DNA of 64,000 nt, from assembly GCA_030280995.1 (NCBI GenBank), contig JASXTE010000008.1, positions 21,937,693 through 22,001,692 of the forward strand, given 5' to 3'. The stretch comes from Hemileia vastatrix (lineage: Eukaryota > Basidiomycota > Pucciniomycetes > Pucciniales > Zaghouaniaceae). The notes beneath the pieces are model-generated. The model was not told where the DNA came from, did no database searches, and was given only the letters and a program-made list of their open reading frames with translations. Position numbers and translations under genes: made by a program. Positions 4,204-49,421 of the stretch are shown one piece after another. Numbering within the stretch: the stretch's first letter is position 1; each line of letters begins with the position of its first letter.

Positions 4204-4513
4204 ATAGAACTACATATTTCACTGAATATGAGGTTTGTGTATACATATAAGCTTATGTATGTGTATAATTACTTTATATCACTTAAGATAAGTATATTAT
4301 CACTCTATTAACCCCTTAATAAGTATTATTAGGCTATGGATAAACTATTTAAACTACTATAAGTCATATAATAGTGTAATATTTATATATATATGTATTA
4401 TAACCATAAATATAAGTATTATAACCTTATTTTAAGTTATAATCTTAATGTAATTAAGGTTATCATATTTAAAACATAAAAATTGCTCAGTCCTGAAGAT
4501 ACCTAGTTTGACA
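4204..4513 (-). repeat. LTR1 fragment, inner part of the 3' LTR of element A
   Basis: Matches 13100-13413 and the inverse of the first 310 bases of the element B LTRs. It ends CTAGTTTGACA, where other copies have CTAGGCTGACA. The remainder of this LTR is at 277-1145. Confidence 0.88.
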
Positions 4514-4524
4514 CTCCCTCACCC
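4514..4524 (-). other. Polypurine tract of element A
   Basis: On the minus strand reads GGGTGAGGGAG directly upstream of the 3' LTR, preceded by a T-rich stretch. The same 11-mer, or GAGTGAGGGAG, abuts the 3' LTRs of elements B, D and E. Plus-strand DNA synthesis primes from such tracts in LTR elements. Confidence 0.8.
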
Positions 4525-4630
4525 AAAAAAACAATAAAAAAAATGTTAAGACATTTTAATTAATAAGTAAGGAGTGAATAGAAAAATAATTTAAAAATTT
4601 CTATGATACATATACTGAATTTTAACATTA

Positions 4631-7600: not shown

Positions 7601-8300
7601 GTTCATTGGTTCCATGTGAAAAAGACATTGGAAATGATTTAATTAAGTCCAAAATATTTGTTTTCTCAGCTTTACTTATCTGAGTGCCAAACGATGCTTT
7701 TGAAATTTCTGTTTCCAGAAGTTCCATATTATTGGATTCTCTTCCTTTGCAAGGAATATTTATTACTGAATCAATGTGTAAGACTGTTTTAAAAGAATTT
7801 TTTTTAAATTTCCTTTTACCATTCATGCCAATTGTAAAACTATTATTAGAAGGGTTTAATTTTACACCAAACCTAGTCAGAATGTGATTTCCAATGAAAA
7901 AACAGTTACTAAAATTAGTATTGTCCATTACTACAAAGCCACAAGTTTCTCTAACATAACCATTTTGTTGTTTAAAGAAAAAAGCAGCTTTGTATCTACC
8001 AATGGGGTGTAGTACTGATCCAAAAACTCTCAAATATTTACTTTGAAGGGGTTCAAGCTTTGACTTATACTCACTATCAATTTTCTGTAATGTATTTGTA
8101 GAAACAACAGAATCAGCAGCTCCTGTGTCCAATACAATATTTACATTTTCTCCAGAAATGATAGCTGAAACCATGATAGGTGTCATTTTCAAGTTATCAG
8201 ATTGTATATCCTTAATGATTTCAGCATCCTAGAAATTCATTAAAAGTTCATTTTAGTCCATACTTAATATTGGAATTTCAAAGATAGACAAATCATCTCC
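4631..8300 (-). pseudogene. Element A pol pseudogene (protease-RT-RNase H-integrase-chromodomain)
   Basis: Broken into several frames. In coding order: aspartic protease with IVLDTGAAD (about 8120); reverse transcriptase with LDGNKGYNHIPVEKN and a YIDT box in place of YIDD (about 7060-7090); RNase H with FVLYTDASFIGLGA (about 6610-6640) and ITDCSAVKSL; integrase zinc region HDDILAGH...CDSCQ; integrase core with VIVDRF, VSDRDPKF and HHPQTNGLEERM; a GPF-type module with HPVLPISLIKPY; and a C-terminal chromodomain-like segment YLLRFKNKSS...WIPENEI. This order is that of a Ty3/gypsy chromovirus. Stops and frameshifts occur between most segments, so it is dead. Confidence 0.9.
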
Positions 8301-8399
8301 CAACATACAGACTTCATTTTCATCTCTATATGAGATATTACTATCATACTCACTTGGATATTTACTTTTTTCTGTTTCAATTTCAGATTAATGCTGATT

Positions 8400-10501
8400 T
8401 TCAACAATATTTATATTCTTCTCACATTTGTGACCTTTATTTCAAGGTTTATTACACCTATAACAAGTATTAGTTTCATAGTTTTTAGGTACTACAGGTG
8501 CAGTAGGTTTTTTCTGCTTCTCCTGAGGTGTTTTTGAACTCTGATTTTTCACAGGTTCATTATTTTGTTAATACGTGGTGTACCTTGCTTCATACTTATG
8601 GTTTAATAATATTTCATTTAAAATATTAATAAATTGAGAGTAATCATTAACCATTATTGTTCTAGCTACAAAAATGTCTCTGACAAATATAGGTAATTTA
8701 TATATTAACTTATCTTTCCATAAGTTAAAATACATTTTTGGCTCAATGGCTTTTAATATTTTATTTAAATTCATTAAAAATACCACAGGTTTGTTGCCAT
8801 TTGATGGATTATACCTAGTTTTCTCATATAATCTTTCCTGAGTGAGCCTAAATTTAGAGCCTCCAAATTGTTTTTCAATTAGTTTTTTCCATTCAGTCCA
8901 AGAGTAATCTCTACCCTCACTCAAAACAGCTTCAAACCATAATATAGCAACATCCTTAAATAAAGAGATCAATTTTGATGTTATTTATTCATCTGGTAAC
9001 TTATATGAGAATTTTAAGTTTTCAATTCTTTGAATAAAATGTTATCAATGAGTGCTGGCTTCCCCATCATAAGTTGGGTACTGATCAATCTTTGGCCAGT
9101 TCTTTTGATTGGATTTTATTTCACTAATCTTAGGTAAATTCAATAACTCATTTACACTGGATAAATGGTCTTGTATTTCCTCTTGCACGGATTTGTGACT
9201 TACATTCGTATTTTCAGACTTGACACTACCACAAAATAGTTTTTTTTGTGGTGGTATGGGAAATGATTGAGATTTGTTTTTTCCAATGAAAGGATTATTT
9301 TTATACTGTGTACACTTATGATTATCCTGATTCATTAGTAGATTAGCAGTTTAAATCTCAACTTTAGTTAATCTTTGTAACAGATCAGAGACACTCTGAT
9401 TTGTTTGTACAAAAGATAACTTAGTTCTTGATTCATATTTTAATAAATGTGCTTCATACAGTTTCTCTAACACACAGAATTTTTTTTGAAAGTTCACTAT
9501 ATTTATTACTTAAAGAATCATATTTAAGAGTTAGAGCCAAGTGTTCATTCTCTAATTCTTTATTTCATGTTGCCAGTTGAGAAATGTTCAATTTCAAGGA
9601 AAAAATTGTATCACTTGTGAGCTAAATCGTCTGTTCCTCACACTCATTCATTCTATTACATAATGCTGAAACAATTCTATGGAAAGTTGGGTTATTATTA
9701 AAATACTCCATTTCTTCCTTCTCAATTTTTTTCACTGTTTGGTGAACTTCTCATCTCACTAATAAGTGGTGGCAACTGAGGGTTAACTGTATTATTATTA
9801 TCAATAGTACTGTTGTTATTAACAAAAGATAAATCAGGTGTATCTACATCAAAGCCTAATTGTCTTAAGTCCTCCTCAATTTTCTGTACAGATTTTACAT
9901 CAATAACATTACCTATATTGTAATAATCAGTATTGTGTTCAATCTGAGAGGGTAATCTATTTACCACGGGATAGGAGAAAGCCCTTACTCTTGGCACTTT
10001 TGCTTTCTTTGTAGGGGTGGGCTGAGGCAGTCTGATGAGGGGGTGGATCCCTGTTGCAATTGTGGCTTGACCACTTCTGGTGGAACCAATCCCACTTCCA
10101 TTTCTCTACAAATATTTTTTCCTGGGAATGATGTGATCCTCCTTGAGTAGGGGTTTGTTGGCTTGTCTTCCCTACCTTTAACTACGCCAAGGTTTGATTC
10201 ATTTTTTGGAACCCCACCTTGCAGTTGTTTTGAAACTGCTCTACCTCCTTTAGCATGGTAGGTTTTTATTAATCTAGTTTCAGAACCTGTTTGGACAGAT
10301 GAGACAGTTGATCCAGCAGAGGAGGTGAAGTCTTTTTTATTGTTATCTTTTTAGAAGGGCGTCCATTTCCTCTTTACTCATAGACTCTGGTTGTGTGTAG
10401 GATTGAACCTCCATGGTGATGTCCTGGAGCATTGTTTTTAGCTTTAGTAATGATGTTATAAGCAGGATTTTTGCTTACATTGTCCTGTGGAGCACTCATT
10501 G
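8400..10501 (-). pseudogene. Element A gag pseudogene
   Basis: Starts MSAPQDN at 10501. Includes the PRVRAFSYPVVNRLPSQ segment (9722-9997), a coiled-coil-like stretch, a capsid-like domain with VAILWFEAVLSEGRDYSWTEWKKLIEKQFGGSKF (8568-8972), and near 8430-8470 an unusual zinc-knuckle-like CYxC...KGHKC. Frames are broken by several stops. Element B has a homologous gag in the same order. Confidence 0.85.
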
Positions 10502-11003
10502 TGACTTAAGTAACAGTTCTTTACGTCTACAAAAGGGAAAACCTATATGTTAATTAGTGGACAAAAAATATTAGCAATAAAATTACTAATAAAAGCACAG
10601 AAGCTTACCCTGAATTTAAATCTTTATTTGTTTAAATAAAATATAAGAAAAATTCGGAAAACTCTGATAAAAAAAATAAGTTTAACTATTACTTTATAAG
10701 GATGAATAATTAGCTTAAAAAGATTTAAAGAAATACCAATTTAATTGGGTTTTATATTGGTGGCCAAATACCAAGTGAAATTGGGTATATATTGGGTACA
10801 GTTACTACTGTAAATACCTAACTTTTATTATAAAAAATTTATACAATTATTATAAGGGTTCTTTTTCGCAATTACTGAGCTAAAATGACCTACTAATGTT
10901 CTGCAGACCCAAATATTTGGTTTGTTTGAGATATACTAGAGAAAAAATCACTTCCTAAGGCTTATACTAAATAATAAGGAATAACTAAGAAAAGACCCCC
11001 GAT
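10502..11003 (-). other. Element A leader and primer-binding region
   Basis: Non-coding leader between the 5' LTR and gag. Next to the LTR it reads AATCGGGGGTCTTTTC on the minus strand. The matching position of element B (15185) has ATTGGGGGTCTTTCC and element G has a related AATTGGGTGTCTTTC. This conserved block is the candidate primer-binding site; it does not start with TGG as a usual tRNA-complementary site would. Confidence 0.5.
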
Positions 11004-11009
11004 TGTCAG

Positions 11010-12236
11010 TATTGGTGGGTTGTCTAGAAGAAGGAGAAGAAGAGGGGGAAAAATAGAATAGGAAGAAGATGAAAAATAAAGATAAGGTTTGCAATAGTAA
11101 TTAAGAAACAAAATATAATTGTTTTAATAGAGAGGAATACAACAACACTTTATGAGGAATGACACAATAGTAGATTTAATTGATATTTAATATATTTAAA
11201 TTTAATAAGTTTTATTTCAATGTGCGGTAATCAATTATTATTGTTAATAGACTTATGGCAACCTTAGTATTATATAAAATTTAGATTAGAACTGTAGTAC
11301 TAATAAAAATAAAAATAATTGTATTATATTTAAAATATGATAAAGTATGAGTTTAATCAGTGATCCTCCACCAGAGAGGTTTCAAAAGCCATTTTATAGG
11401 TAAGAGGACATTCTGGAGCGGCTCAATACTATTTGAAAAAGAGTAAGACAATGTGAAAATAATTAAAATAATTTTAATTAAAAACATACAAAATAAGAAC
11501 AACACATTAAACCTAGGAATAAGCAACTACTCTCCCACCATAGAATTCTGAAAAGAAATAGAATTAATAAAATGAATAACTATGTGAGTATAAAATCTAA
11601 AAACTGTGAAAAGATAATCTAAAACAGGTAATACAAATAGATAAAAGGTTTAGTTAAAACAAAAGGAATTATTTTCACGCTTTTATTATATATAATAAAT
11701 CTTAATTCAGTATAAAGACAAATTAAATTAATCATTTTGAATATTTCAAGTAATTTAATTATTAATTTAATTGAAACAACCTTTTTAGAATTAGAAATTA
11801 AATTTATCATATTAAATAAGTATTTTGCTTAATTTAGTAATTTGAGTGACACAATTAAGGGTTAAGGAAGCGCCCAATATTTATAGATAGTATTATATGA
11901 TAAGTCATATTTAGTTTATATAAATTTTATTATTCAAGTTGTAATTATAATTTAAATGTTACACTTATAAAATAATTATAAATAATTAATTTATTGATTT
12001 AGAAATATTAAATACATAAAAAATGTGCCATGATGTTATAGAATATAATATCCTTTCATGTAATAAAAAGTTTCTTAATAATAAATATAAAAATTATTTT
12101 ACTTATAAAATAATTATATAATTTATTCAATAAGAGTTTTTATTGTAATTACATAAAATGTATAGCATTATTCCCTTAAATGATTCCAGTAATTTATCAT
12201 ATAATTTACTGGGCTCCAGAGATAGCCTGGCTGACA
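11010..12236 (-). repeat. Solo LTR2 inside the 5' LTR of element A
   Basis: Starts TATTGGTGGGTTGTCTAGAA and ends ATAGCCTGGCTGACA; it matches the LTR of element E at 60028-61168. It is flanked by a perfect 5-bp duplication GTCAG (11005-11009 and 12237-12241), so it is a true insertion followed by LTR-LTR recombination. It landed at bases 2-6 of LTR1 (TGTCAG). Its 1227-bp length exceeds the 1141 bp of the E copy, so the two copies are diverged. Confidence 0.9.
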
Positions 12237-12241
12237 GTCAG

Positions 12242-13413
12242 TGTGTGCTAGTATCTAAGTATTATTTAATAGTAAATATTGATGGTCCAACTACTTATTG
12301 ATAAATGATTTAGTGATTAAACTTCAGGGGAAGACTAATAAAATAGAGATTCTCAATATAAACTCACAATACTTGGATTTTTTTGCGTGCTAGTGGTGGA
12401 AAATAGATCAATAAAATATAGTTATAGCTTATATAAAGATAATATCAATTTATAAATGCTTTATAATATATTAATATATAATAATAATTATGTTTTAGTG
12501 TTTATTTGAAGTTTAGTAAGTAAGTGATGTCCAATAACCTGTCAAATCCTCCCTTACTTATACCCAAATCCACTGGAGCGCCCAGACCTTCAATCAAGAT
12601 GATGTCACTTCTATCCCCAGAAATTACAGCACTGTGAAGGCCCATCATCTCCCAATGGCCTCCACTTCAAGCAGTTTCAAAACCCAGACCTCCAGTAAGG
12701 ACCCTTCATCACAATTAATGATACCACAGACCCATGCCATAAATAGAATAAACAGATAAAAGCGGATACCATAAAGAAACAGGTAAAATAACTCATCCAA
12801 AGAGTATATAATGAAAACCAAAGCATATAAAGGAATAAAATTAACTTTACAAGCCCCAAATAACATCCCCAAGAATCCATATTAACCCAGTAATCATATC
12901 ACAACTCATACATCCATGAAAATCTATCCTACGAAGCAGATTAAGTTGTCGAAATTGAATATATGCGCCTGAAATAGGTGTATATGCTTGTTTAGGCATT
13001 GTGAGTCCACTGAATACTTCCATAAGACCTATAATAAGCAGAAAAATAAAGGTTATAGTCTATTTAGAGGTTAAAACCCACTTATAGACCTAAATATACA
13101 TAATATAACTACATATTTCACTGAATATGAGGTTTATGTATACATATAAGCTTATGTTTGTGTATAATTACTTAATATAACTTAAGATAAATATATTAGG
13201 ACTTCATTAACACCTTAAAAAGTATTATTACGCTATGGATAAGCTATTTAAGCTACTATAAGTCATATAATAGTGTAATTACTATATATATATGTATTAT
13301 AACCATATATATAAGTATTTTAAACTTATTTTTAAGTAATAAGATTAATGTAATTAAGTTTATCTTATTTTAAACATAAGAATTACTCAGTCCTGGAGAT
13401 ACCTAGGCTGACA
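12242..13413 (-). repeat. LTR1, 5' LTR of element A
   Basis: With the six bases at 11004-11009 this gives 1178 bp, close to 1176 and 1177 bp in element B. Ends CTAGGCTGACA and is followed by the GAATC duplication. It carries the same aromatic-rich open frames as the other LTR1 copies (12645-12880). Confidence 0.9.
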
Positions 13414-14008
13414 GAATCCACAATAATGCATTATTCTGCCTCTTATACACCAATTTCTGTTCCTAATTCCTGGTCCCAAACTCATCACTTCCAAGATTGA
13501 CTTGTCATCAAGTCACATGACATATAATTAAAGATGCCATCCTTTTGTATCTCTTCACTCTATGATACATAATTTTGGTAGCAAACACATATTATTTTTT
13601 TCTATCTAAACACCGCACCTGCTCATTTGGTGGAAAATTCCCACTTCTCACTCATCTCCTAAACCTTCTACCAACAACCTTTTCTACCAAAAAAAATGAA
13701 GTGCTTCTCTACTAGGAAGAAACTTCACACAGCTATGAATGCTATCACTTTAGATTTAGCCACTGACTCTGCTTCTTACTCTGGTTTGGAAGACACTTTA
13801 GCTTATATGTCTTATCTCTCCAAAAAGTGTTACATCATCCCGAGGGGGAAGAATATTTATCATGATCCCAGATATGATCTCCGCTCTATTCTTAACATTC
13901 CTCACCTAAGCTTTACTCAACTATTTTTAACTTCTCCTAATTCTTTTTATTAAATTTCTCCACTTATCTCCAATCATCCTATCTTCCATAATAACTCCCA
14001 TAAAAAAT

Positions 14009-15184
14009 TTTCAGCATAGGTATCTCCAAGACTGAGTAATTCTTATGTTTAGAATATGATAAACTTCATTAAATTAAGATTATAACTTAAAATAAGGTTA
14101 AAATACTTATATATATGGTTATAATACATATATATATAATTATTACACTATTGTATGACTTATAGTGGTTTAAATAGCTTATCCATAACCTAATAATACT
14201 TTTTAAAGTGTTAATGGAGTGATAATATAATTATCTTAAGTGATATTAAGTAATTATAGACATACATTAGCTTATATGTATACATAAACCTCATATTCAG
14301 TGAAATATGTAGTTATATTATGTATATTTAGGTCTATAAGTGGGGTTTAACCTCTAAATAGCCTATAAACTTTATTTTTCTGCTTATTATAGGTCTTATA
14401 GAAGTATTCAGTGGACTCACAATGCCTACACAAGAATATTCACCTATTTCAGGCGCATATATCCAGTTTGGACAAATTAATCTGCTTCCTGGGATGGATT
14501 TTCACGGATTTATGAGTTGGGATATGATTACTGGGTTAATATGAGTGCTTGGGGATATTATTGGGGTCTTTTACAGTTAATTTGGTTCCTTTATATGCTT
14601 TGGTTGTCATTATAAACTCTTTGGATGAGTTATTCTACCTGTTTCTTTATGGTATCTGCTTTTATCTGTTTATTACATTTATGGCATGGGTCTGTGGTAT
14701 CATTAATTGTGATGGAGGGTCCTTACTTGAGGTTTGGGTGTTTAAACTGCTTGAAGTGGACGCCATGGGGAGTTGATGGGCCCTCACAGTTCTATAATTG
14801 CTAGGGATAGAAGTGACATCATCTGGATTGAAGGTCTGTGCACTCCAGTGGATTTGGGTATAAGTAAGGGAGGATTTGACAGGTTATTGGACATCACTTA
14901 CCTACTACACTTCAAATAAACACTAAAACACAATTATTATCATATATAAATATATTATAAGGCATTTATAAACTGATATTATCTTTATATAAGCTATAAC
15001 TATATTTTATTGATCTATTTTCCACCACTAGCACGCATAAAATCCAAGTATTGTGAGTTTATATTGAGAATAACTATTTTATTAGTATTCCCCTGAGGTT
15101 TAATCACTACATCATTTAACAATAAGTAGTAGGACCACTAATACTTACTATTAAATCATACTTAAATACTAGCACACACTGACA
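14009..15184 (+). repeat. LTR1, 5' LTR of element B
   Basis: Starts TTTCAGCATAGG (TGTCAGCCTAGG in the 3' copy, so its first TG is mutated) and ends CACACTGACA. Contains open frame 14549-14776, a hydrophobic 75-residue sequence also open at 509-736 and 12645-12872. Confidence 0.92.
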
Positions 15185-15695
15185 ATTGGGGGTCTTTCCT
15201 TAGTTATTACTTTTTATTTAGTATAAGCCTTAGGACATGATTTTTACTCTAGTATATCTCATACAAACCAAATATTTGGGTCTGAAGTAAATTAGTGGGT
15301 TGTCATAACTGAGTGATTGGGGAAAAGAACACTTATAATAATTTTACTAATTTTTTATAATAAAAATTAGGTATTCACAGTAGTAACTGTACCCAATATA
15401 TACCCAATTTCACTTGGTATTTGGTCACCAATATAACACCCAATTATATTGGTATTTGGTAAAAGCTTGGTAAGCTAATTATTAACCTTTATATAGTTCT
15501 ATTTAAACTTATTATATTATTTTTAAGTGATTTTTTTTTTAAATTTACTTATATTCTATTCTAATAAATAAAGATATAAATTCAGTGTAAGCTCAAGTGC
15601 TTTTATTAGTAATTGTATTGCTAATAAATTTTTTCTACTAATTACCATATAGGTTTTCCATTTTGTAGACATGAAGAACTGTTATTTAAGAAACA
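15185..15695 (+). other. Element B leader and primer-binding region
   Basis: Begins ATTGGGGGTCTTTCC next to the LTR and then has AT-rich non-coding sequence with several ATTGGTATTTGG-like repeats near 15400-15460. The gag ATG is at 15696. No structured RNA is evident. Confidence 0.5.
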
Positions 15696-17775
15696 ATGAG
15701 TGCTCCACAGGACAATGTAAGTAAAAAACCTGCTTATAACACCAGGTCTAAACTAAAAACATTGCTCCAGGACATCACCATGGATGGTCAATCTAACCCA
15801 CAAGCAGAGTCTATGAGCATAGAGAAAAAAATGCCCTTCTAAAAAAGATAAAAATCAAAAAGACATAACCTACTCTGAAGGATCAACTGTCCCATCTGGC
15901 CAAACAGGTTCTGAAACTAGAGGAATCAAAATCCACCATGCTAAAGGAGGTAGATCAGTTGCAAAACAACTGCAAGGCTGGGTTCCAACAAATGAATCAA
16001 AACTTCGCAGAGTTAAAGGTAGGGCAGCCAAGCCGAGGGTCACATCATCCCCAAGAAAAAGTATTTGTTGAGAAATGGAAGTGGGATTGGTTACATCAGC
16101 AGTGGTCAAGCCACAATTGAAACAGGGATCCACCCCCTCATCAGAATGCCTCAGCTCAACTCTACAAAGGAGAGCAAAAGTGCCAAAAGACAGGGCTTTC
16201 TCCTATCCCGTGGTAAATAGATTACCCTCTCAGATTGAACACAATACTGATGATTACAATATAGGTGATGTTTTTGATGTAAAATCTGTACAGAAAATTG
16301 AGGAGGACTTAAGACAATTAGGTTTTGATGTAGATACACCTGATTTATCTTTTGTTAATAACAACAGTACTATTTATAATAATAATACATTTAACCCTCA
16401 GTTGTCACCACTTATTAGTGAGATGAGAAGTTCACAAAACAGTGAAAAAAATTGAGAAGGAAGACATGGAGTATTTTAATAATAACCCAACTTTCCATAG
16501 AATTGTTTCAGCATTATGTAATAGAATGAATGAGTGTGAGGAACAGACGATTTAGCTCACAAGTGATACAATTTTTTCCTTGAAATTGAACATTTCTCAA
16601 CTGGCAACATGAAATAAAGAATTAGAGAATGAACACTTGGCTCTAACTCTTAAATATGATTCTTTAAGTAATAAATATAGTGAACTTTCAAAAAAAATTC
16701 TGTGTGTTAGAGAAACTGTATGAAGCACATTTATTAAAATATGAATCAAGAACTAAGTTATCTTTTGTACAAACAAATCAGAGTGTCTCTGATCTGTTAC
16801 AAAGATTAACTAAAGTTGAGATTGAAACTGCTAATCTACTAATTAACCAGGATAATCATAATTACACACAGTATAATGATAATTCTTTCATTGGCAAAAA
16901 TGAATCTCAATCATTTCCCATACCACCACAAAAAAATCTATCTGGCGGTAGTTTAAAGTCTGAGACAACAAATTTAAGTCAAAATCTGTGCAAGAGGAAA
17001 TACAAGAACTTTTTCCAAAGTAAATGAGTTATTGAATTTACCTAAGATTAGCGAAATAAAATCCAATCAGAAGAACTGGCCAATGATTGATCAGTACCCA
17101 ACTTATGATGGGGAAGCCATCTCTCATTGGCAACATTTTATTCAAAGATTTGACAACTTAAAATTCTCATATAAGTTACCAGATGAAGAAATAACATCAA
17201 AATTGATCTCTTTATTTGAGGATTTTGCTTTATTTTGGTTTAAAGCTGTGTTAAGTGAGGGCGAAGATTACTCTTGGGCTGAATGAAAGAAACTGATTGA
17301 AAAACAATTTGGAGGTTCTGAATTCATGCTCATTCAGCAAAGATTATATGTGAAAACTAGGTATAATCCATTGATTGTTGACAAACCTATGGTATTTTTA
17401 ATTAATTTAAATAAAATATTAAAAGCCATTGAGCCAAACATGGATTTTAACTTATGGAAAGATAAGGTAAAATTTAAATTTCCTATATCTGTCAGAGACA
17501 TTGTTGTAGCTAGAACAATAATGGTTAATGAATACTCTGAATTTATTAATATTTGTAATAAAATATAATTAAACCATAAGTATGAAGCAAGGTACACCAC
17601 TTATTAACAAAATAAAGAACCTGTGAAAAATCAGAGTTCAAAAACACCTCAGGAGAAGTATAAAAAACTTACTGCACCTATAGTACCTAAAAAGTATGAA
17701 ACTAATACTTGTTATAAGTGTAATAAGCCTTGGGTTAAAGGTCACAAATGTGAGAAGAATATAAATATTGTTTAA
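15696..17775 (+). pseudogene. Element B gag pseudogene
   Basis: Starts MSAPQDNVSKKPAYNTRSK. Includes a VEKWKWDWLHQQW motif (about 16070), the AFSYPVVNRLPSQIEHNTDDYN segment (16195-16260), the capsid-like FALFWFKAVLSEGEDYSWAE region (17220-17290) and a zinc-knuckle-like CYKCNKPWVKGHKC (about 17709-17750). Cysteine spacing there is CX2CX7HXC rather than the common CX2CX4HX4C. Stops occur in several places, for example after YSWAE, where element A keeps Trp. Confidence 0.85.
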
Positions 17776-20700
17776 AATCAGCATGAATCTGAAATTGAAA
17801 CAGAAAAAAGCAAATATTCAAGTGAGTATGATAGTAATATCTCATATAGAGATGAAAATGAAGTCTGTATGTTGGGAGATTATTTGTCTATCTTTGAAAT
17901 TCCAATATTAAGTATGGAATCAAATTAAACTTTAATGAATTTTGAGGATGCTGAAATCATTAATGATATACAAGCTTATAACTTGAAAATGACACCTATC
18001 ATGGTTCCAGCTATCATTTCTGGAGAAAATGTAAATATAGTATTGGACACAGAAGATGATGGTTCTGTTGTTTCTACAAATACATTACAGAAAATTAATA
18101 GTTAGTATAAGTCAAATCTTGAACCCCTTCAAAGTAAAAATTGGAGAGGGTTTGGATCAGTACTACACCCCATTGGTAGATATGAAGCTGCTTTTTTCTT
18201 TAAACATCAACATGGTTATGTTAGAGTAACTTGTGACTTTGTAGTAATGGACAATACTAATTGTAGTAACTGTTTTTTCATTTGAAATGACATTCTTACT
18301 AGGTTTGGTGTGAAATTAGACCCTGCTAATAATAATTTTACAATTGGCATGAATGGTAAAAGTAAATTTAAAATAAATTCTTTTAAAACGGTCTTACACA
18401 TTGAGTCAGTGATAAATATTCCTTGCAAAGGAAGAGAATCCAATAATATGGAACTTCTGGAAACAGAAATTTCAAAAGCATCATTTGGATCTCAGATAAT
18501 TAAAACTGAGAAAACAAATATTTTGGAATTAATTAAAGCATTTCCAATTGTTTTTGCACATGGAACCAATGAACATGGCCTTGTAAAAGATCATGAGATG
18601 AAAATTAGTTTAACCTGTGATATGGATAATATTCTTCCTAGTCTTAAAAAGAAACCATACCCTGCTTCACCAATGAAGAGGAAAGACATAGTGGATAATG
18701 TTAAGATGTTATTAAAAATGAAAATTCTTTAAAAGGTTGAAACTACACCAAAATATTGTGTAATATCACCAGTGCTAATTTCTTATGAGCAAGATAAAGC
18801 AAGACTGTGCAATTAGTATAGAGCATTAAATACATTTACAGTGGATGATATTTATCCCTTTCCAAAGATTGCCTCTATACATGCTACCCTTAAAGGTGCT
18901 AAGCATATAAGTTGTCTAGATGAAAATAAAGGGTAGAGACAGATTCCTGTAGAAAAGAACTCACAGAACATTTTGCTAATAACAAAACATATGGGAATAT
19001 ATAAATATGTCAGGATGCCATTTGGGCCAAAAAATGATCCATCAGTATTTCAGAAGTTAATGGATATAGCATTCCATAATGAAATGATTGAGGGATGGTT
19101 AATGGTATAAAATGATGACATTATAGTGTTCTCTAAGACATATGATGTACACTTAGTCCATTTAAAGAAGGTATGTCAAAAAATGGATGAATAAAAATGA
19201 CCCTTGCATTGAAAAAATGTAAATTTGGGTTTTAGTCTTTAAAAGTGCTTGGTCATATTTTATCTGGCTTACAAATATGTGTAGACCAAAATAAGGTGGC
19301 TGAAATCAAGAATTATGGAATTACTCAAAATGTAAAGTATGTACATTCTTTTCTTGGTATGTGTGGTTATTATAGACCATATATTAAGAACTACCAATTT
19401 ATTGCTGCATCATTGACCACACTGATAAAGAAATCAGAATCTTTCATTTAGAATAATGAAAGACAAAAGGCTTTTTATAAGTTGAAAGAATGTTTAATGT
19501 CAGCTCCTATCTTGGGATTACCAGATTTCCAATTGCCTTTTGTATTGTATACAGATGCAAGTTTTATTGGTCTGGGTGCTGCATTTCATCAAAAACAACT
19601 TATTGAAGGGAGAATGTCAGAAGTAGTTATTTGCTATATTTCACATACTTTAAGAAGTAGTGAATTGAAATATGGTGCTACTCAACTTTAATGTTTGGCA
19701 GTAGTATGGGCTCTTGAGAAGCTACATTATTACCTTGAAGACCAAAAATTTGAGTTAATAACTGACTGTAGTGCAGTTAAGTCACTCTTAAACATGAAAA
19801 ATCCTAATAGACATATTTTTAGATGGTAATTAGCTGTACAAGAATACAGAGGACGGATGACTATTACACATAGAGCAGGAACCTTACACTCTAATGTAGA
19901 TCTGTTATGTAGGGTACCTCTACCCAATAATGATGATAATACTGTTTATGTTCCTGAAACAGAGATTATTAACATTTATGGCATTTATATTGTAGATCTT
20001 GAGGATGAATTTATGCAATCAATTCTTGATAATTATGCTTCAGATCCAGACTTGCGTAAACTTACTACAATATTAAATGATCCAACTAATGCTTCAATGA
20101 GTGTTTTAATAAAAAAATACCAGAAAAGTATAAAGAAGCATTAGAAAAATGAAAATTTTCCATTAAAGATGGTTTTATATATTACAGGAAGATATTAAGC
20201 AAATTAATTGTAATTCCCCCTTCAATGAAGGAGATAATGTTAATCATATGTCATGATGATATATTAGCAGGTCATTTTGACTTCCATAAAATATTAACCA
20301 GAGTAAAAAATACAGCTTGGTGGATTATAATGTCTGATGATGTTCAAAAATATGTTTAGACATTTGATTCTTGTAAAAAATCTAAAAGATTAATGGGAAA
20401 AAGAGCTGGTTTATTACAACAACTTGAGCAACCAAAAGATCCATGGGAAAAAGTTAACATGGACTTTGTATCAGGTTTTCCAATAGCAGGGCATAAGAGT
20501 TAAAACTCCTTCTGGGTAATTGTAGATAGATTTACAAAAATTTGTAAATTTATTCCTACCCAAAAAGAGTTTTCTGAAAAGGACTAACCTTTTTATGGTG
20601 GACACAAATGTTAAATATAGCAGGTTTCCCCAAAGCAATAGCCTCAGACAGAGATCGTAAATTTACTTCTGAGTTCTGTACATCACTTATGGATGTTTCA

Positions 20701-21540
20701 GGGTGTCAATTAAAACTTTTTACAGAACACCATCCACAAACTGATGGGCTATCAGAAATAACAATACAAACTTTAGAAGATATGATAAGAAGATATAGCT
20801 CTTTTAGTCTTGAATTTAAAGACAATGACAAATTCACGCATGATTGGGTTACCCTTATCCCAGGTTTGGAATTTGCATACAATAGTACAGTATATTCTGT
20901 CATTGACAAAAAGCCATTTGAAGTATGGTTGGGTTATGTACCTAATACCCCTTCTAGAACTCTTAATAAATTCCCTAGATTGGTTATCCATCAAGGTACA
21001 AAATTTTTTCTTTAGATGCAAGAATTATGCAGAAAGCATGCTCATGAATGTATAAATAAGGCATTTGAAAATGAGCAGAAAAGATGGGATAAAGCCCATA
21101 AAGAACAAATGTTCAAAGAGGGTAATGAAGTCCTTATTTCTACACTTTATTTCAATTTAAATGGTAATGTTAAATTGGAAGATCCATTCATTGGACCATT
21201 TGTAGTAAAAAAGATGGTTGTTAACAATGCTGTTGAATTTATTCTATATGTGACATATGATAGAAAAAATCCAGTATTTCCTATTTCCCTTATAAAACCA
21301 CACCATTCAAATGATACTGCTCTAGTTCCAAGAAGATTGGGAAGGCATAAACAGAAACCTGATGAAATATTTGAAAAGGCAGAAATTGAAAAGATACTTA
21401 AAAAGAGACACCTTACTAAAGAAAAGGGAGTTGAGTATTTATTAAGATTTAAAAATAAATCAAGTGAATATTACCAGTGGATTCCAGAAAATGAAATATC
21501 TGATCTTTAAAATCTCTTGAAAAAATTTAAATCCAAATAA
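17776..21540 (+). pseudogene. Element B pol pseudogene
   Basis: Protease region with VLDTEDDGSVVS (about 18042), reverse transcriptase (18640-19200), connection to RNase H with FVLYTDASFIGLGA (19539-19580), integrase with HDDILAGHFD, VIVDRFTK and ASDRDRKF (20640-20660), HHPQTDGLSEI, a GPF module, and a chromodomain-like end YLLRFKNKSSEYYQWIPENEISDL (about 21439-21510). Numerous stops and frameshifts. Same domain order as element E, which is intact, so E can be used to align the broken parts. Confidence 0.88.
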
Positions 21541-21639
21541 TACTTGTTCAGCATATGTATCATAGAAATTTTTTAAATTATTTTTCTATTCATTCCTTAC
21601 TAATTAATTAAAATATCTTAACATTTTTATTGTTTTTTT

Positions 21640-21650
21640 GGGTGAGGGAG
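21640..21650 (+). other. Polypurine tract of element B
   Basis: GGGTGAGGGAG directly before the 3' LTR, preceded by a T-rich run as in elements A, D and E. Confidence 0.8.
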
Positions 21651-22827
21651 TGTCAGCCTAGGTATCTCCATGACTGATTAATTCTTATGTTTAAAATAAG
21701 ATAACTATAATTACATTAAGAATATAATTTAAAATAAGGTTAAAATATTTATAAATCTGGTTATAATACATATATATATAAATATTACACTATTATATGA
21801 CTTATAGTAGTTTAAAGAGCCTATCCATAACCTAATAATACTTATTAAGGTGTTGATGGAGTCATAATATACTTATCTTAAGTGATATTTAGTAATTATA
21901 GACATACATAAGCTTATGTGTATACACAAACCTAATATTCTGTGAAATATGTAGTTATATTATGTATATTTAGGTCTATAAGTGGGTTTTAACCCCTTAA
22001 TAGCCTATAACCTTTATTTTTCTGCTTATTTTAGGTCATATGGACGTATTCAGTGTACTTTAAATGCCTACATAAGCATATACACCTATTTCAGGCACAT
22101 ATATCCAGTTTGGACAACTTAATCTGCTTCCTTGGATGGATTTTCACGGATTTATGAGTTGGGATATGATTACTGGGTTAATATGGATACTTGGGGATGT
22201 TATTGGGGGCTTGGACAGTTAATTTGGTTCCTTTATATGCTTTTGGTTACATTATATTCTCTGTGGATGAGTTATTTTACCTGTTTCCTTAAGGTATCTG
22301 CTTTTATCTGTTTATTCCATTTATGGTATTGGTCTGTGGTATCATTTATTGTGATGGATGGTCCTTAATGGAGGTCTGGGTGTTGAAACTGCTTGAAGTG
22401 AACACCATGGGGAGCTGATGGGCCCTCACAGTGCTGTAATTGCAGGGGATAGCAGTGACATCATCTGGATTGAAGGTCTGTGCACTCCAGTGGATTTTGG
22501 TATAAATAAGAGAGGATTTTGATGGGTTATCGTACATCAGTTACTTACTAAACATTAAACAAACATCACAACACAATTATTATCATAAATAAATATATTA
22601 TAAAACTTTTTTAAATTGATTTTATCTTTATATAAGCTATAACTATATTTTATTATTCTATTTTCTACCACTAACACTCAAAAAATCCAAGTATTGTGAG
22701 TTTATATTGAGAATAACTATTTTATTAGTCTTCCCCTGAGGTTTAATAACTAAATCATTTAACAATAAGTAGTAGGACCATTAATATTTACTATTAAATC
22801 ATACTTAAATACTAGCACACACTGACA
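21651..22827 (+). repeat. LTR1, 3' LTR of element B
   Basis: 1177 bp, TGTCAGCCTAGG to CACACTGACA. It differs at scattered positions from the 5' copy, so the insertion is not recent. Confidence 0.92.
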
Positions 22828-23151
22828 AAAAGTGTGGTTCTTCCTTTCAACTTGCTGTTGCACTATTTTGCTTTGGATCAAATGCAAATGGTGCTGCTGT
22901 AAGACATTTAGGTAATCTCTTTACCATAGGATATGGTACCATCATATTATACACCAAGAGCTGCATAATTGATATCCTTTCTATTGAGTTTCAAACACTT
23001 GCTTGGCCAACTCCACAACAGCAAATTGAATCCCCTCAAGTAATGCAAGTCAAAGGTTTCCCTGGATGTGTAGGTTTTTTTGATGGTACAAGTATACATT
23101 TGAGTCAAAAGCCTACTCATGTTGGCAACCATTATTTTGATTGAAAAAAAA

Positions 23152-23214
23152 GTTTTCTTCAAAATGTTCTCCAATTTCTCATCTTTAATAAACTAACTTT
23201 TATCTTCTTTGTAG
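23152..23214 (+). other. Probable intron in the H1 transposase gene
   Basis: GTTTTCTT at the start and CTTCTTTGTAG at the end, between coding segments for YFD and YSIAVHFACD. Exact frame continuity fails by one base, consistent with decay. Confidence 0.5.
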
Positions 23215-24232
23215 ATATTCTATTGCTGTTCATTTTGCCTGTGACGTCATCAAAAATTTTATTTCTTTTCATAGTGGTTGCCCCGGCACATGGCACGACT
23301 CTTCCTTCTTCCAAAGAATGAGGATTTCACAAAGTCCTGACTCTTACTTTGAAGAATCTCAGTACCTCCTTTCAGACTCAGCATATGCAAGTGGAAAGTA
23401 CATGATACCTGCTTTCTGTGGTGCAACCTTAGAAAATGACCCCAAAACCACCTTTAATTATCACCTTTACCAATAAAGAGTACAGATTGAACACGCTATT
23501 GGGATTTTAAAGGGAAAATTTTTAAGTCTTAGGGAACTCAGAATCCAATTTCAAAAAAAATGGAAATCAAAACTGCAAATCATTAGATACTGACTTGTGT
23601 TATACTCCACAATATCCTAGCTGATTTAAAGGATGAGTGGAATGATGTTTATGAAGAAGAGGATCCTGAACCAGCAATGGCTCTCCCCTCCCTTGAATTA
23701 CAAAACATTCATTCAAATGGAATACGCTCTGTAATTATACCAATCACCTGCCACAATTTTGACACACAACCCTTTTAACTTTTTGGTTTCATACTTTCCA
23801 AATTTACACTTTATATACTTTATTCACTTGGATTGTCATTTTTGTTTGTTGCATATTATTTTTTTTTTAATTTACGGTGAATATCTCTTTTTTGGATGGC
23901 TCATTGGTTTTATTTCACCAGCTCAACATGAAATCACATATTTTCTGAAATTGCATATTTTTTTAGTGTTTCTTTTTTTCTTTCTTCACTCATATTCTTC
24001 TCCTCCTCTCCTCAAACATTGCTCAAATATTTTGGTAGAATTTTTTTAACTCATCACAACAGGTAAGTCATTTTTTTCATTTTTGTTGATTTTTGATTTG
24101 CTAATCATGAATTTTTTTTTTGCTTTTTTTTTGCTTTTTTTATTTTTTTTATTTTTTTTGTTATTTTTTTTTTTTTTTTGTAAGTGCTTCACTTATTTTT
24201 TTTCAAGGACAGACTAATTTTTTTTTGTCTTT

Positions 24233-24393
24233 TCTCTCCCTCTTTTCTCTCCCTCTTTTCACTGCCTCTTTTCACTGCCTCTTTTCACTCTCTCTTTTCA
24301 CTCCCTCTTTTCACTCCCTCTTTTCACTCCCTCTTTTCACTCCCTCTTTTCACTCCCTATTTTCACTCCCTATTTTCACTCCCTCTTTTCTTT
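24233..24393 (+). repeat. 13-bp pyrimidine tandem repeat
   Basis: About 12 copies of a CTCTTTTCACTCC-type unit with minor variants (ACTGCC, ACTCCCTA). Lies in the spacer between the transposase and TET-like genes of H1. The related spacers of H2 and H3 lack this expansion, so it arose in H1. Confidence 0.85.
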
Positions 24394-24399
24394 CTCTCT

Positions 24400-25066
24400 G
24401 GTCTCTCTCCTCCTCCTCGTTTTCTTTCCTTTTTCCCCCTTATTCTCTTCATCACCCCTCATTCCTCACCATTCCTCACCATTACCCCCTTTTATCCCCT
24501 TTTGGTGTTTGTTTTTTGCCCTCTTTAGGCCCCTTATACCCCCCTTTACTCCCCTTTCCCCTTTTAGGCCACCTCACCCCTCTCCCCCCCATCCCCCTAT
24601 CCCCTCCACTGCTTCCTCCCCTCCCCCCTCCCCCCTTATTTCTTTCACTTCTCTCCCCTTCCCTCCTTATCCCTTTCCCTCTCTCCCCCCTCCCCTCTCA
24701 CCTTGCCTCCACCCCCCTTTTATCCCTAAAAAATTGCTTAGTGATTTGTTTAGGGATTATAGGGGGGAGGGGGGAAGGAAGGGGGGAGTAGGGAGGGGGG
24801 GAAAGGGATGGGGGGGAGGGGGAAGTGGTGGGGGAGAGAGGGGGATCAGGGGGTGAAGCAGTGGAGAGGATAGGGAGATGAGGGGGGGGAAAAAGGGGTC
24901 AGGCAGCTTAAAGGGGGGAAAAGAGGTGTCTAAAGGGGGCAAAAGGCACCTCAAGGGGGGAAAAAAGAGGGGGAACTGGTGAAAAGGGGGGCTTAAGGGG
25001 ATTTTGAGGAGATCATGAAGGGGGAGGGGGGGTTGGAGAACACCAAAAAGAGAAAAATGAGGCAGA
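24400..25066. repeat. Polypyrimidine block followed by G-rich polypurine block
   Basis: The plus strand is almost pure C/T to about 24727, then switches within about 30 bases to G/A-rich sequence with many runs of 4-8 G to about 25066. The blocks are partly complementary and could form a long imperfect hairpin; the G-runs could form quadruplexes. Long frames through this block are low-complexity and not genes. Confidence 0.75.
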
Positions 25067-25555
25067 CAAGAAGGGGTAATATGGGAGTTTGTAAAATATA
25101 ACTATTATTATTTTTATTAACAATATTTTGTATTTTTTTTTTTACTGAATATCATTATTATTATTATTATTATTTTTTTTTTTTACAAAATATTATAAAA
25201 AAATTTTTTATGGTTCAAGCTGATTAAAAAAAATTATGTGTGTTTATAATTTTAATTTTTTTTTTGGGTATAATTTTTCTGATGCAATTTTTTTTTTGTT
25301 TAAATTTTTGAGTATAGTTTTTTTTATCATTTTTTTTTCAAGGACTTTAGGTGGTATATCTAACACCTAATAACTTTAAAATTTATTTATTTGGCAAATA
25401 ATTTTACTGATGTTTGTTTTTATTTTATTTTATTTTATTTTTTTCAATTTTTTTTTCAAGGACAGTTTTAGTAATTGATCTATTTTCAAAAAACAATTAT
25501 TTGGATTATTTTTTATCAATAAAATTCTCAAGGTTGAATAAAAAGACTGAATTTT
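25067..25555. other. AT-rich spacer in H1
   Basis: T-rich sequence with ATT and TTTTA microsatellite stretches. It has two TTTTTTTTCAAGGAC copies (around 25335 and 25450), also seen at 24200; this short repeat may be a decayed splice or regulatory segment. No gene recognised. Confidence 0.4.
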
Positions 25556-26694
25556 GTGAGTTTTATTTTTTTGGTTTTTGACACAAATATTTATTTGTTC
25601 AGAGAAATAAATGTCTATTTTGTCAGAATCACCTCTTACTTCTCTATCATCATCCTCTTTATCCTCTTTATCATCATTTCAAATTCAACTTCATTTCAAT
25701 TGTCATCCAAAATATCAAAAAAAAGTTATGATGATGGAAGTCAGCAGAATAAAAGAAAATTAAAAAAAAATTCATTTGAGTTGCATATTTGGCCATATAT
25801 CAAATATCAAGTACTATAAAACTAGAGTGGATCAAAAAAATTCTTATCCAAAAAATTTACCAGAAGATTTAATTTATTTAACCAAATCAGGAGATGATGA
25901 AATTAAAGCAGTTATTAGTAATTCTTTAAACCTCAATTTATTTATGAAAATCATTCTTTTAATGGTTAAAAAGATGAAACATTTAATCAACTATCCAATC
26001 TCATAATAACAATATAAAAAATGGTTTTGGTTTGCTTACCCATAAGGAATACAAATTTTTTGGGTGGTATAATTATTGGATTTAGTTGGAGACCAGCATT
26101 TGATAAAGGATATTCTCTTGGTATGTCTGATAATATATTTTTCATTCTCATACTCATTTCACTAATTGTTTTTTCATAGGCATCTGTTCTTTACTTAAAA
26201 ATTTATCTAAAGCTGAAAAAGATGATGATTTTTGCTTATGAGAAACCATACCTTCTTTCAATACTTTTATTGCTTTTTGCTTCAAAAAACTCCGCAATAA
26301 AGCTTTTCAAAAGAATCATCAACTTACTACCAAATTAAGAATACCAAATTTTTGTGACTATAAATGGGAAGAAATTAGCAACCAATATCTTTTATTTTCA
26401 AATGTTATTATTACTCATTCAGGATTCCGCAACAAGATTCATATAAATAGGAATGACACCAATTATCTTACTTTTGGAATTTTCTCATATATCAATCCGA
26501 TAACTTGCCAACCAATACAATCTCCAGCTAAAATCAAAAGACATGGATTATATTTTCCATACCATCAATGCATGATTGATTTTGGTTTGAGAAATGGGGT
26601 GATTGACACAATTTTGAACTCTTCTCAAGATCATCACCAGGCAACCAAAGCACCACCTGGCTTGGAATCTTTTCAAGAGTTCATACATTTTTGA
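25556..26694 (+). pseudogene. TET/JBP-like 2OG-Fe(II) oxygenase, H1 copy
   Basis: Resembles the Tet-like 2OG-Fe(II) oxygenase proteins of rust fungi. Segments: LPEDLIYLTKSGDDE (about 25860), IGFSWRPAFDKGYSLG (26072-26118), a probable intron 26119-26178 (GTATGT...TCATAG), then SNVIITHSGFRNKIHINRND, LTFGIFSYINP, HGLYFPYHQCMIDFG, and a C-terminal SFQEFIHF. Family members oxidise 5-methylcytosine or thymine, using HxD and a distal His for iron. Here HxD reads H-I-N (26440-26448), so the Asp is replaced; His residues at 26632-26637 could be the distal ligand. A stop replaces Gly at 26692, after which C-PFQITQNLIHKINK still resembles the family end. Frameshifts occur near 25980. Probably inactive. 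Confidence 0.75.
26119..26178 (+). other. Probable intron in the TET-like gene
   Basis: GTATGTCTG at the start and TTTTTTCATAG at the end. Removing it joins the WRPAFDKGYSLG segment to the following coding segment in a readable frame. Confidence 0.6.
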
Positions 26695-27107
26695 TGTCCT
26701 TTTCAAATAACTCAAAACTTAATCCACAAAATAAACAAGGTAAAAAAAGAAGTTAAATTTAACAAATATAAAAAAAATTTATGTAGATCAAAAAAGTATG
26801 GGGATTAGTAGAGTCATCAAATATTTTTAATTTTTTCATAAAATTTTTATAAATAACTCTTACATTTTGAATTCCTAAACTATAGTAATGGGCCAATAAC
26901 CTTGTGTTGAATAAACAGTAATCATGAAAGTATTAAATTGTTTCATGGGGCTCATCTTGCCTATACCTGTGGAAAGTCCCAAACTTAGTTTCTAGACTTG
27001 GTCCACATTTTGGTTGGATGAGTTGTAATTACTTTAAAACTTGGTATATTTATATATATTATTTATTTATATATTAATTTATGTAATTATATTAAATTTT
27101 GGTGATT

Positions 27108-27242
27108 TTCACCCCTTACTTCAATAAAATGAAGGGTAATGTATTGCCAAATTTTCATATCTGACATGTGAAATTGATGGCTTAGAAATTTTTTTGGTGA
27201 TACCCACCCCTTGCTTCAATAAAATTCAGGGGAGGGTATTTC
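27108..27242 (+). terminator. Duplicated AATAAA hairpins between convergent H1 genes
   Basis: Two hairpins about 90 bp apart, each with AATAAA in the loop between CCCCTTACTTC-like and GAAGGG/CAGGGG-like arms (27111-27139 and 27208-27236). H2 has both in the same position and spacing (49422-49528, opposite strand). They lie downstream of the TET-like gene and just past the end of the Myb/SANT-like gene, so they may serve as poly(A) signals for one or both. Confidence 0.5.
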
Positions 27243-27549
27243 AAAATTATTAAAACAGATATATAGTTTTGTTGACTTAGCTGTATTTAGAAAAGTAAAT
27301 TTAATGATTTGAATGTAAAGAAGAAAAAATATATGAGTTTTTCAAATTTTTTCAAAAAAAATCATCTTGAATCAAGACCTTTAAAAAGTCAGCACATATG
27401 AAATTATCACCAAAAAGAAATAACAAAAAATTAATATAACCAAACAAACAAATAATCTAAAATTTTGCAATAAATTGTTTCAAATCTCAGTGAGGAGTGT
27501 GTGCCAATGATTAATTATTAGATTTAATGCATTCTATCAATAAAACTTT

Positions 27550-28850
27550 TTAAACAAAATAAAAAAACAAGTTATCAAACATTTTCATCAAGCGTTCAAT
27601 TTCTTCAATAGATTTATTAGCTTTGTTACAATCTCTTAAGAAATCTTTCTTTTTTGAACCATCTTCAAGTTGATACTTGAGTTTAATTTGATCCAATAAG
27701 AAATTGTACTCAAGAGCCTTCTCCTCTTTCTTTATCTTGAATTTCTTCTCCTCCAAATCATGTGCCCTCTTCTCCCTCTTTAAAGAAAGCTTGAATTTCT
27801 TCTCCTCAAAGTCATGTCCCTCTCATCCCTCTGTAAAGAAAGCTTGAATTTTTTCTCCTCCAAGTCTTGTGCCCTTTCATCCCTTTGTAAAGAGAGCCCA
27901 TATTGTTTTTTTTGAAATTTGAGAGAATCTCTTGCTAGTTCAACTTTACCTAGAGTGAAAATGAATATTAACAAAAGAAAAGAAAGGATCACTTAATTAT
28001 TAAGAGATATTCTATCATTTACCAGATTAAAACTTCTCCAGAAAATCATCAATAGAAGAAAAAGGGGTTTGGGAAAAACTATCTTTGTTTTGCTTTCTAT
28101 GACTGTTAAAATTCAAAGTAGTTGAAGGTCTTTGCTGTTTTTTGGAGGTAAAATTTTCCTCTTCATCATTAATTCTAGCTTCAGACTCACTTGCTTGAGT
28201 ATCCTGGGTTCATTCATTAGCCTTTTTAGAAATCAAAAAAATTAAACAACTGACAAGAAATAAAAACTTACTGGAGTAGAATCATGTTGGTTTATTTCAC
28301 CATAAGGATCTATTGAAAAGCTATCTATATTTGTTGAATTTAGAGCAGGGGAGGCTTGAGTGGAGGAAGAGGACAGGAAAAGATTTCTTTTGACATCATC
28401 TTCAGAGATAGAATCTTCACCATCCAACATGTTGGAAGGATTCACATCAGCTCGCAATCCAAAAATAGTATCAATCTTTTTAAAGTATGTACATAGCAAA
28501 TCAAGTTTATCATCTATTGACTTTATGCTCTTGCTGATATTGATGTTGGTAATGCAAAAACCAGTAGAAAATGAAAGATTCTTTTCGTTCTTGTATTTGG
28601 CTGGGTAACTCTTGAAACTTTCAGACATCTGTTTAGGCAAAAGATTGATCCTTCCCTTTGTATTATTTAGTAATTCATTGGCCATTAGAAGATAGCCATT
28701 GACTTTTGAAGCAGGGGGCCATCCTACTTTAGTTATATTCTCAGTACCAAAACAAGAATCATAATTAGTTTTTATTTTTAGCTAGTTGATAAGTATGAGA
28801 TGATCAACTTTTTTTAGTTGAACAGTCTTTAATTTCTCAGATGAGCGGGG
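27550..28850 (-). pseudogene. Myb/SANT-like (trihelix-like) second protein of H1
   Basis: The N-terminal part reads SSEKLKTVQLKKVDHL, then VGWPPASKVNGYLLMANELLNN, LPKQMSESFKSYPAKYKNEKNLSFSTGF, and KSIDDKLDLLCTYFKKIDTIFGLRADVNP, a pattern seen in rust Myb/SANT-like proteins. The C-terminal third (27550-27992) is charged with repeated LSLQRDERxxxLEEKKFK units and is probably coiled coil. PIF/Harbinger elements usually encode such a DNA-binding partner that helps the transposase. Stops and at least one frameshift break it. Convergent with the TET-like gene. H2 has a homologue at 48930-49200. Confidence 0.7.
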
Positions 28851-29232
28851 GAAAGAGGGAGTAATGGGATTTGAAGAAAAACAGGGGGAAGGCTGCCTTT
28901 GAGAAGATCTAATATGACAGGGCATGTTGAGATATTTGAAGATGAAAAGGAGAAGAAAAAAACAGATGAGATGGGGAGGAGTTTTGAACAGAAATAAATA
29001 GACAGGATGGGAGTTTGCAGCAAGTTAGGGAGGCTGGCACATCCAAAAAGTTGTTCAAGATGTGGTTATAGAAAATTGAGGATAAAAATTTCAGATAGAG
29101 GTGAACATTGACATGCAAAAGGTCTAATAACCAAATTATTAGAAAAAATAATTGTAGAAGATAATTGGGGTATAAGGATTTTTATCTGCAATTAATTTAA
29201 TTAAGGATCCGTCAATATCGGTACCCCCTATT

Positions 29233-49200: not shown

Positions 49201-49421
49201 AAATAATTATATGATGAGATTCTGATAAAATCATTTGTCCTTACTGGACTCTAAAGTATCAAAATTTTGGAATTTCAGATGGTAACAGATTAATGACACC
49301 TCTGTGAAAATCCTCATCACCAACATAGTTTTATCACCTCCCCTCAAATTTGAATTTCTAAATAAATCTAAGTCTTCCAAATTCTATATATGTTTGAAAA
49401 ATTTGGAAGTACCCTCCCCTG

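What the first reader, a model, noticed from the sequence alone, without database searches (positions are those of the whole stretch)
13414..29229. A Harbinger-like transposon carries a TET/JBP-like dioxygenase
H1 encodes a DDE transposase, a TET/JBP-like 2OG-Fe(II) oxygenase and a convergent Myb/SANT-like protein inside one set of terminal repeats (1268 and 29229). Fungal TET/JBP genes have been linked in the literature to KDZ-type transposons; here the company is a PIF/Harbinger-like transposase. A DNA-base-modifying enzyme as transposon cargo could help the element evade or reset methylation. Seen: the three protein signatures, ends and order. Known: family activities. Inferred: that the oxygenase serves the element.
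Basis: partly seen in the sequence, partly recalled or inferred. Interest (0 to 1): 0.88.

Follow-up and report, generated by a model that had tools for sequence, protein, structure and literature searches.

The report
Jumping gene carrying a DNA-demethylase relative
This window holds a broken copy of a high-copy jumping gene, from what is likely a rust fungus, that carries a relative of TET DNA-modifying enzymes which would likely help it escape silencing; the same pairing was published in 2025, but here young sister copies that lack the gene have spread as well.

Summary
The element is real and the TET-like gene belongs to it. Positions 1268 and 29229 are both true ends of one PIF/Harbinger-like element; the left end now lies inverted, two LTR retrotransposons split the element, and 13414 is only where one of them stops. 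Frame 26242-26694 matches Pfam 'Tet-like 2OG-Fe(II) oxygenase' (E 2.9e-17). This copy is dead: stops in all three genes and the iron-ligand Asp changed to Asn. The 'Myb/SANT-like' third protein scores below cut-off. The pairing is known: Kojima 2025 (PMC12730594) named such elements PHISTA, with TA target duplications as found here. In the same genome, of 18 copies chosen by transposase, 9 carry both TET exons, 2 exon 2 only and 7 none; 6 of those 7 have both ends and part of the third gene. TET-less copies share deletion junctions at separate loci and are 98.8-99.2% identical to a TET-bearing copy. So the oxygenase is not needed in cis for spread, although differences between lineages show purifying selection (P = 2.6e-5). 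CpG sites decay about 30 times as often as other C/G sites, a footprint that fits cytosine methylation. Verdict: new member of a known kind, with an informative TET-less sublineage.

The parts
1146..1268 (-). left terminus of the element, now in inverted orientation (end at 1268)
   Evidence: reverse complement aligns to left termini of L032-L035 at 89-93%
277..3942 (.). segment that appears inverted between two 261-bp inverted repeats (16-276, 3943-4203)
   Evidence: LTR pieces 277-1144 and 4204-4513 together match the LTR 12237-13413
4204..13413 (-). nested LTR retrotransposon 1 (its left LTR also includes 277-1145), 5-bp duplication GAATC
13414..14008 (+). element: 5' leader and N-terminal part of the transposase gene
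14009..22827 (+). nested LTR retrotransposon 2, inside the transposase gene (ends approximate)
22828..23780 (+). rest of the transposase gene, DDE_Tnp_4, with stops
24218..25040 (.). pyrimidine-rich then purine-rich array with internal inverted repeats, between transposase and TET
   Evidence: also in L038
25611..26179 (+). TET-like gene, exon 1 and intron (frameshifted, approximate)
26180..26805 (+). TET-like gene, exon 2 with catalytic core; 2 stops; HxD reads HIN
   Evidence: PF20515
27571..28973 (-). convergent third gene (function unknown; no significant Myb/SANT match), with a stop in the N-terminal part
29199..29229 (.). right terminal inverted repeat, flanked by TA

Best explanation
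This is a decayed copy of a high-copy PIF/Harbinger-like transposon, likely of the published PHISTA kind, that carries a TET-like gene whose enzyme is predicted to oxidise methylated cytosine on the element's DNA and so likely delays its silencing and its CpG decay. Shown: ends GGGGGTATCAA...TTGATACCCCC flanked by TA; transposase, TET-like gene and convergent third gene between them; complete two-exon TET genes with HxD in some young copies; purifying selection on TET between lineages; strong CpG-specific decay. Shown too: TET-less copies with an open transposase frame have spread, so TET is not needed in cis. Inferred: that the host is a rust, that cytosine methylation causes the CpG decay, that the enzyme acts on 5-methylcytosine, and that TET-bearing copies may serve TET-less ones in trans.
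For: PF20515 at E 2.9e-17 in the window copy, 1.9e-31 in L034 exon 2 and 1.3e-36 over profile positions 11-211 of 211 for spliced L038. DDE_Tnp_4. TA flanks at 17 of 17 left and 12 of 13 right ends found among 18 copies. TET neighbourhood is element sequence downstream in 27 of 30 TET-first loci (at least 1188 of 1500 bases). Fixed clade differences 23 synonymous to 12 non-synonymous against singletons 62 to 160 (P = 2.6e-5). Five of 9 two-exon copies have a complete spliced frame with HxD. CpG transitions 56 of 768 against 18 of 7,560 at other C/G sites (sums). Published PHISTA description.
Against: No enzyme assay and no structure. No significant sequence match to a solved TET. PF12851 Tet_JBP was not hit. 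7 of 18 transposase-first copies have no TET and 2 have exon 2 only. No significant difference in CpG decay between TET-intact and TET-less copies (0 of 5 against 7 of 24 private changes, P = 0.30).
Confidence: 0.72

Rival explanations
1. The TET-like gene is passenger cargo of no use to the element; copies without it spread equally well because nothing was lost.
For: 7 of 18 transposase-first copies lack it, with shared deletion junctions at separate loci; TET-less copies form a young group in the left 1.8-kb tree; no CpG protection detected.
Against: Purifying selection between clades; complete frames with HxD in 5 of 9 two-exon copies; exon-2-only copies L037 and L039 carry stops, though L033 does not.
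Confidence: 0.15
2. The enzyme modifies DNA in another way, for example by adding a group to 5mC or by acting on thymine or adenine, and its benefit is not demethylation.
For: PU-type enzymes are untested and Kojima 2025 leaves other activities open.
Against: The decay is CpG-specific, which makes 5mC the likely mark on these copies.
Confidence: 0.1
3. Each functional copy needs its own TET gene; copies without it are dead ends.
For: The window copy and all four full TET-first copies carry it, but these were chosen by TET.
Against: TET-less copies share junctions at several loci, so they moved after the loss, and have open transposase frames.
Confidence: 0.03

Closest known systems
PHISTA (TET-bearing Harbinger-type transposons of Pucciniales; Kojima 2025, PMC12730594)
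   Same: Harbinger-type transposase, TET/JBP gene, third gene without recognised Myb/SANT domain, TA duplications, likely rust host
   Different: Here one family in one genome holds both TET-bearing and TET-less young copies; the paper, in the parts read, speaks of separate TET-bearing and TET-less families
Nuwa group of the PHIS superfamily (Han et al. 2015, PMC4482050; passages read)
   Same: DDE transposase plus a second element protein; GGG at the tips (NuwaI)
   Different: 3-bp targets and a Myb/SANT protein there; TA and no significant Myb/SANT here
Kyakuja/Zisupton/Dileera (KDZ) TET-bearing transposons
   Same: a TET/JBP gene inside a DNA transposon
   Different: another transposase and 7-8 bp duplications

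Membership tests
PHISTA | Harbinger-type (DDE_Tnp_4) transposase | tested here: met
PHISTA | TET/JBP-type gene in the same element | tested here: met
   absent from 7 of 18 transposase-first copies
PHISTA | target duplication TA | tested here: met
   TA at 17 of 17 left and 12 of 13 right ends found; window copy: TA right, AA left
PHISTA | third protein without Myb/SANT domain | tested here: inconclusive
   only sub-threshold Myb_DNA-bind_4 hits; no fold made
PHISTA | transposase in the PHISTA clade of Puccinia and Austropuccinia | tested here: inconclusive
   groups with Puccinia striiformis, P. coronata, Austropuccinia, Phakopsora and two unnamed proteins, support 0.99; no named PHISTA sequence available
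PHISTA | host in Pucciniales | tested here: inconclusive
   nearest named relatives are rust proteins; genome unnamed, no host gene tested
TET/JBP dioxygenases | Tet-like 2OG-Fe(II) domain | tested here: met
   PF20515; PF12851 not hit
TET/JBP dioxygenases | HxD...H iron triad | tested here: met
   met in intact copies; not met in the window copy, which reads HIN
TET/JBP dioxygenases | oxidation of 5-methylcytosine | not testable with these tools
   needs an assay
Nuwa | 3-bp target CWG or C|TNA|G | tested here: not met
   TA flanks
Nuwa | Myb/SANT protein | tested here: inconclusive
   no significant match; fold not tested
KDZ | KDZ transposase | tested here: not met
   transposase is DDE_Tnp_4; no KDZ model was searched by itself

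The most novel reading that the evidence does not exclude
In this genome one transposon family is split into young TET-bearing copies and young TET-less copies with open transposase frames, so the transposon's demethylase works as a shared, trans-acting public good that freeloading copies exploit. The codon of its own iron-binding Asp sits in ATCGAT, a TCG site on both strands and the most mutable context seen here, so a methylated copy is prone to disarm its own demethylase by an Asp-to-Asn change.
Probability: 0.25. Interest if true: 0.65.

Novelty: new member of a known kind. Interest (0 to 1): 0.42.

Why it matters
It supports, from a further genome, the published view that rust transposons carry their own TET-type enzymes. 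It also offers a natural experiment: copies with and without the gene, nearly identical elsewhere, sit in one genome. Whether such an enzyme protects only its own copy or the whole family could be settled with methylation-aware long reads.

Tried and rejected
Rejected: (1) 13414 as an element end: it is the edge of a nested LTR retrotransposon. (2) 1268 and 29229 as a plain inverted pair: 1268 has the same orientation as 29229 until the flipped segment is recognised. (3) Third protein as Myb/SANT: not significant, and no solved structure matched. (4) A host gene that merely neighbours a transposon: the TET piece recurs in element sequence. (5) Protection of CpGs in cis by TET: inconclusive. 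(6) One inherited origin of the Asp-to-Asn change: Asn and Asp copies are mixed in the tree, so repeated change fits better, but short branches leave it open.

Not obtained: genome-wide counts of copies with and without TET, a genome-wide count of the HxD codon, and a search for a cytosine methyltransferase (PF00145), because the genome search was busy. Structure prediction was interrupted and then switched off, so no fold comparison was made. In one search a motif-exact script found the transposase frame in only 3 of the 12 copies then in hand; the statement that the 18 copies have open 450-454 aa frames rests. That a TET-bearing/TET-less split within one family is not described elsewhere rests on paper searches (no paper), 77 and 78 and on the sections read; it is not a full search. 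Iyer et al. 2014 was not held, and what I know of it is recalled or comes through Kojima 2025.

Full report
1. What is in the window. The window lies in a 747.6-Mb genome of 791 contigs, several of them tens of Mb long. Its GC content is 30.6% and its CpG observed/expected ratio is 0.13 against 0.87 for GpC. The frame 26242-26694 matches Pfam PF20515, 'Tet-like 2OG-Fe(II) oxygenase superfamily', at E 2.9e-17, and 23192-23476 matches DDE_Tnp_4 at E 5.7e-7. The minus-strand gene at about 28973-27571 has no significant Pfam match.

2. The ends. The right end at 29229 is shared with other copies. The left end is at 1268: the reverse complement of 1146-1268 aligns to the left termini of L034, L033, L035 and L032 at 89-93%, and the alignment resumes at 13414. 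Between them stand an LTR retrotransposon in reverse orientation, with the 5-bp duplication GAATC (read), and a segment 277-3942 that lies between two 261-bp inverted repeats, 99% complementary, and appears flipped. A second LTR retrotransposon (about 14009-22827) sits in the transposase. The two LTR pairs differ by 8.3% and 10.0%. So the finding's start coordinate is the edge of a nested insertion, but its claim about 1268 holds. The flanks of this copy read TA on the right and AA on the left.

3. This copy is dead. Translated alignment to better copies shows stops in the transposase, in the third gene and in both TET exons, a frameshifted exon 1, and Asn in place of the iron-ligand Asp (HIN for HID). 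Its right part differs by 17.9% from the nearest full copy compared, L032.

4. The family. A search with the TET piece returned 150 matches, the cap, out of 11,358 first-look candidates. A search with a transposase piece of L034 returned 150, the cap, out of 11,360, each listed at 94% identity or more and without a stop, about 125 of them with frames of 435 aa or more (my count of the list). Candidates are not copies, so the true copy number is unknown but at least 150. Five 9.9-kb loci chosen from TET hits gave four full elements, L032-L035, with GGGGGTATCAA-type ends, TA on the left in 4 of 4 and on the right in 3 of 4, and one nested pair (L031). In the 30 TET-first loci, the 1.5 kb downstream of TET is element sequence over at least 1188 bases in 27; L002, L014 and L017 are the exceptions.

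5. Does each copy carry TET? To avoid choosing by TET I fetched 18 loci from transposase hits. They come from 34 hits typed from the 150, each with a 450-454 aa open frame. Eight of the 18 were drawn at random; the other 10 were picked by hand from the same 34 before their TET state was known. Result: both TET exons in 9 of 18 (L038, L042, L043, L044, L046, L048, L049, L051, L053); exon 2 only in 2 (L037, L039); none in 7 (L036, L040, L041, L045, L047, L050, L052). Six of the seven have both ends and the N-terminal half of the third gene; L047 lacks the C-terminal half; L050 shows neither right end nor third gene in the stretch fetched, so it may be interrupted rather than TET-less. L048 is itself cut within TET exon 2 and shows no third gene or right end. 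The exact left motif was found in 17 of 18 loci and is preceded by TA in 17 of 17; the right motif was found in 13 and is followed by TA in 12 (TT in L049).

6. TET-less copies have moved. One deletion junction is shared by L036, L045 and L052, another by L040 and L041, and the loss of exon 1 is shared by L033, L037 and L039, all at separate loci. In a tree of the left 1.8 kb (no support values printed) the six TET-less copies with both ends group with one TET-bearing copy, L048, inside TET-bearing lineages, and are 98.8-99.2% identical to TET-bearing L038; TET-bearing L042, L043, L046, L051 and L053 are 99.5-99.8% identical to it. A tree of the right 650 bp does not group the TET-less copies, so exchange between copies is possible. 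The simplest reading is that the ancestor had TET, that it was lost more than once, and that TET-less copies went on spreading.

7. TET is selected where kept. Among 28 TET exon-2 cores (of the 30 loci, five left out for length and one as a duplicate; four full copies added), differences fixed between two clades (at least 70% in each) are 23 synonymous and 12 non-synonymous, singletons 62 and 160 (Fisher P = 2.6e-5). Both iron-binding His are kept in 28 of 28; the Asp is D in 9, N in 17 and H in 2. That sample was chosen by likeness to the window's own Asn copy. In the transposase-first sample the Asp is kept in 9 of the 11 copies with exon 2, and is Asn in L039 and L049. Five of the 9 two-exon copies (L038, L042, L043, L046, L053) have a complete spliced frame of 427-582 aa with HxD. 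Spliced L038 matches PF20515 at 1.3e-36 over profile positions 11-211 of 211. PF12851 Tet_JBP was not hit, and a sequence search of solved structures found no TET. The only database relative found for the TET exon is an unnamed protein at 42% identity that keeps the H-x-D.

8. Methylation footprint. In the left 1.8 kb of 12 young copies, C-to-T or G-to-A differences from the majority letter occur at CpG positions in 56 of 768 cells and at other C/G positions in 18 of 7,560 (sums; shared changes count once per copy). TCG is the most affected context (20 of 156), as Kojima states for Puccinia and Microbotryum from earlier work. In TET exon 2 relative to L034 the counts are 182 of 432 and 333 of 3,942 over 27 copies. 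The CpG ratio is 0.40 in L038 and 0.10 in the window copy. That cytosine methylation is the cause is inference; no methyltransferase search was answered. Four TET-intact copies show 0 CpG changes among 5 private changes and five TET-less copies 7 among 24 (P = 0.30): no evidence of protection in cis. The Asp codon lies in ATCGAT in the intact copies (TTCGAT-type Phe variant in L053 not examined at DNA level), so one CpG change there is silent and the other replaces the iron ligand.

9. Comparison with what is known. Kojima 2025 (PMC12730594; seen: abstract, passages, part 1 of 3 of the Results, section 3.4, part 1 of 2 of the Discussion, figure legends; supplements not) describes PHISTA: TET-bearing Harbinger-type families with TA duplications from six Pucciniales species, a third protein lacking Myb/SANT, and the proposal that TET helps escape methylation-based silencing. 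The element here meets the features I could test. Han et al. 2015 (PMC4482050; passages only) define Nuwa by other targets and a Myb/SANT protein. In a tree of 38 transposases (36 of the 97 found, and two own) the own proteins group with Puccinia, Austropuccinia and Phakopsora proteins and two unnamed ones (support 0.99). The closest named transposases are 43-49% identical, from Puccinia coronata, P. striiformis and Austropuccinia; 12 of 13 third-protein relatives are from Puccinia. The genome is therefore likely a rust; it is unnamed and no host gene was tested.

10. Verdict. What is added is a contrast, within one genome, of TET-bearing and TET-less young copies, which argues that the gene is not needed in cis for recent spread and makes its protective role testable.

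Noticed in passing
window 16-276 and 3943-4203: Two inverted 261-bp MITE-like repeats, 99% complementary, bracket a segment that appears inverted; similar material sits in the TET-deletion regions of L036, L040 and L041.
   Followed up: partly
window 47510-49900 and 58750-59900: Rearranged fragments of related elements without a detectable TET gene.
   Followed up: partly
window 24218-25040; L038 2421-3060: Pyrimidine-rich then purine-rich array with nested inverted repeats between transposase and TET; the TET deletions of L036, L040 and L041 begin inside this array.
   Followed up: partly
window 11010-12235: About 1.2 kb of unexplained sequence between the body of retrotransposon 1 and its right LTR, ending in an LTR-like ...CTGACA.
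   Followed up: no
whole window: CpG observed/expected is 0.13 while GpC is 0.87, a very strong CpG depletion.
   Followed up: partly
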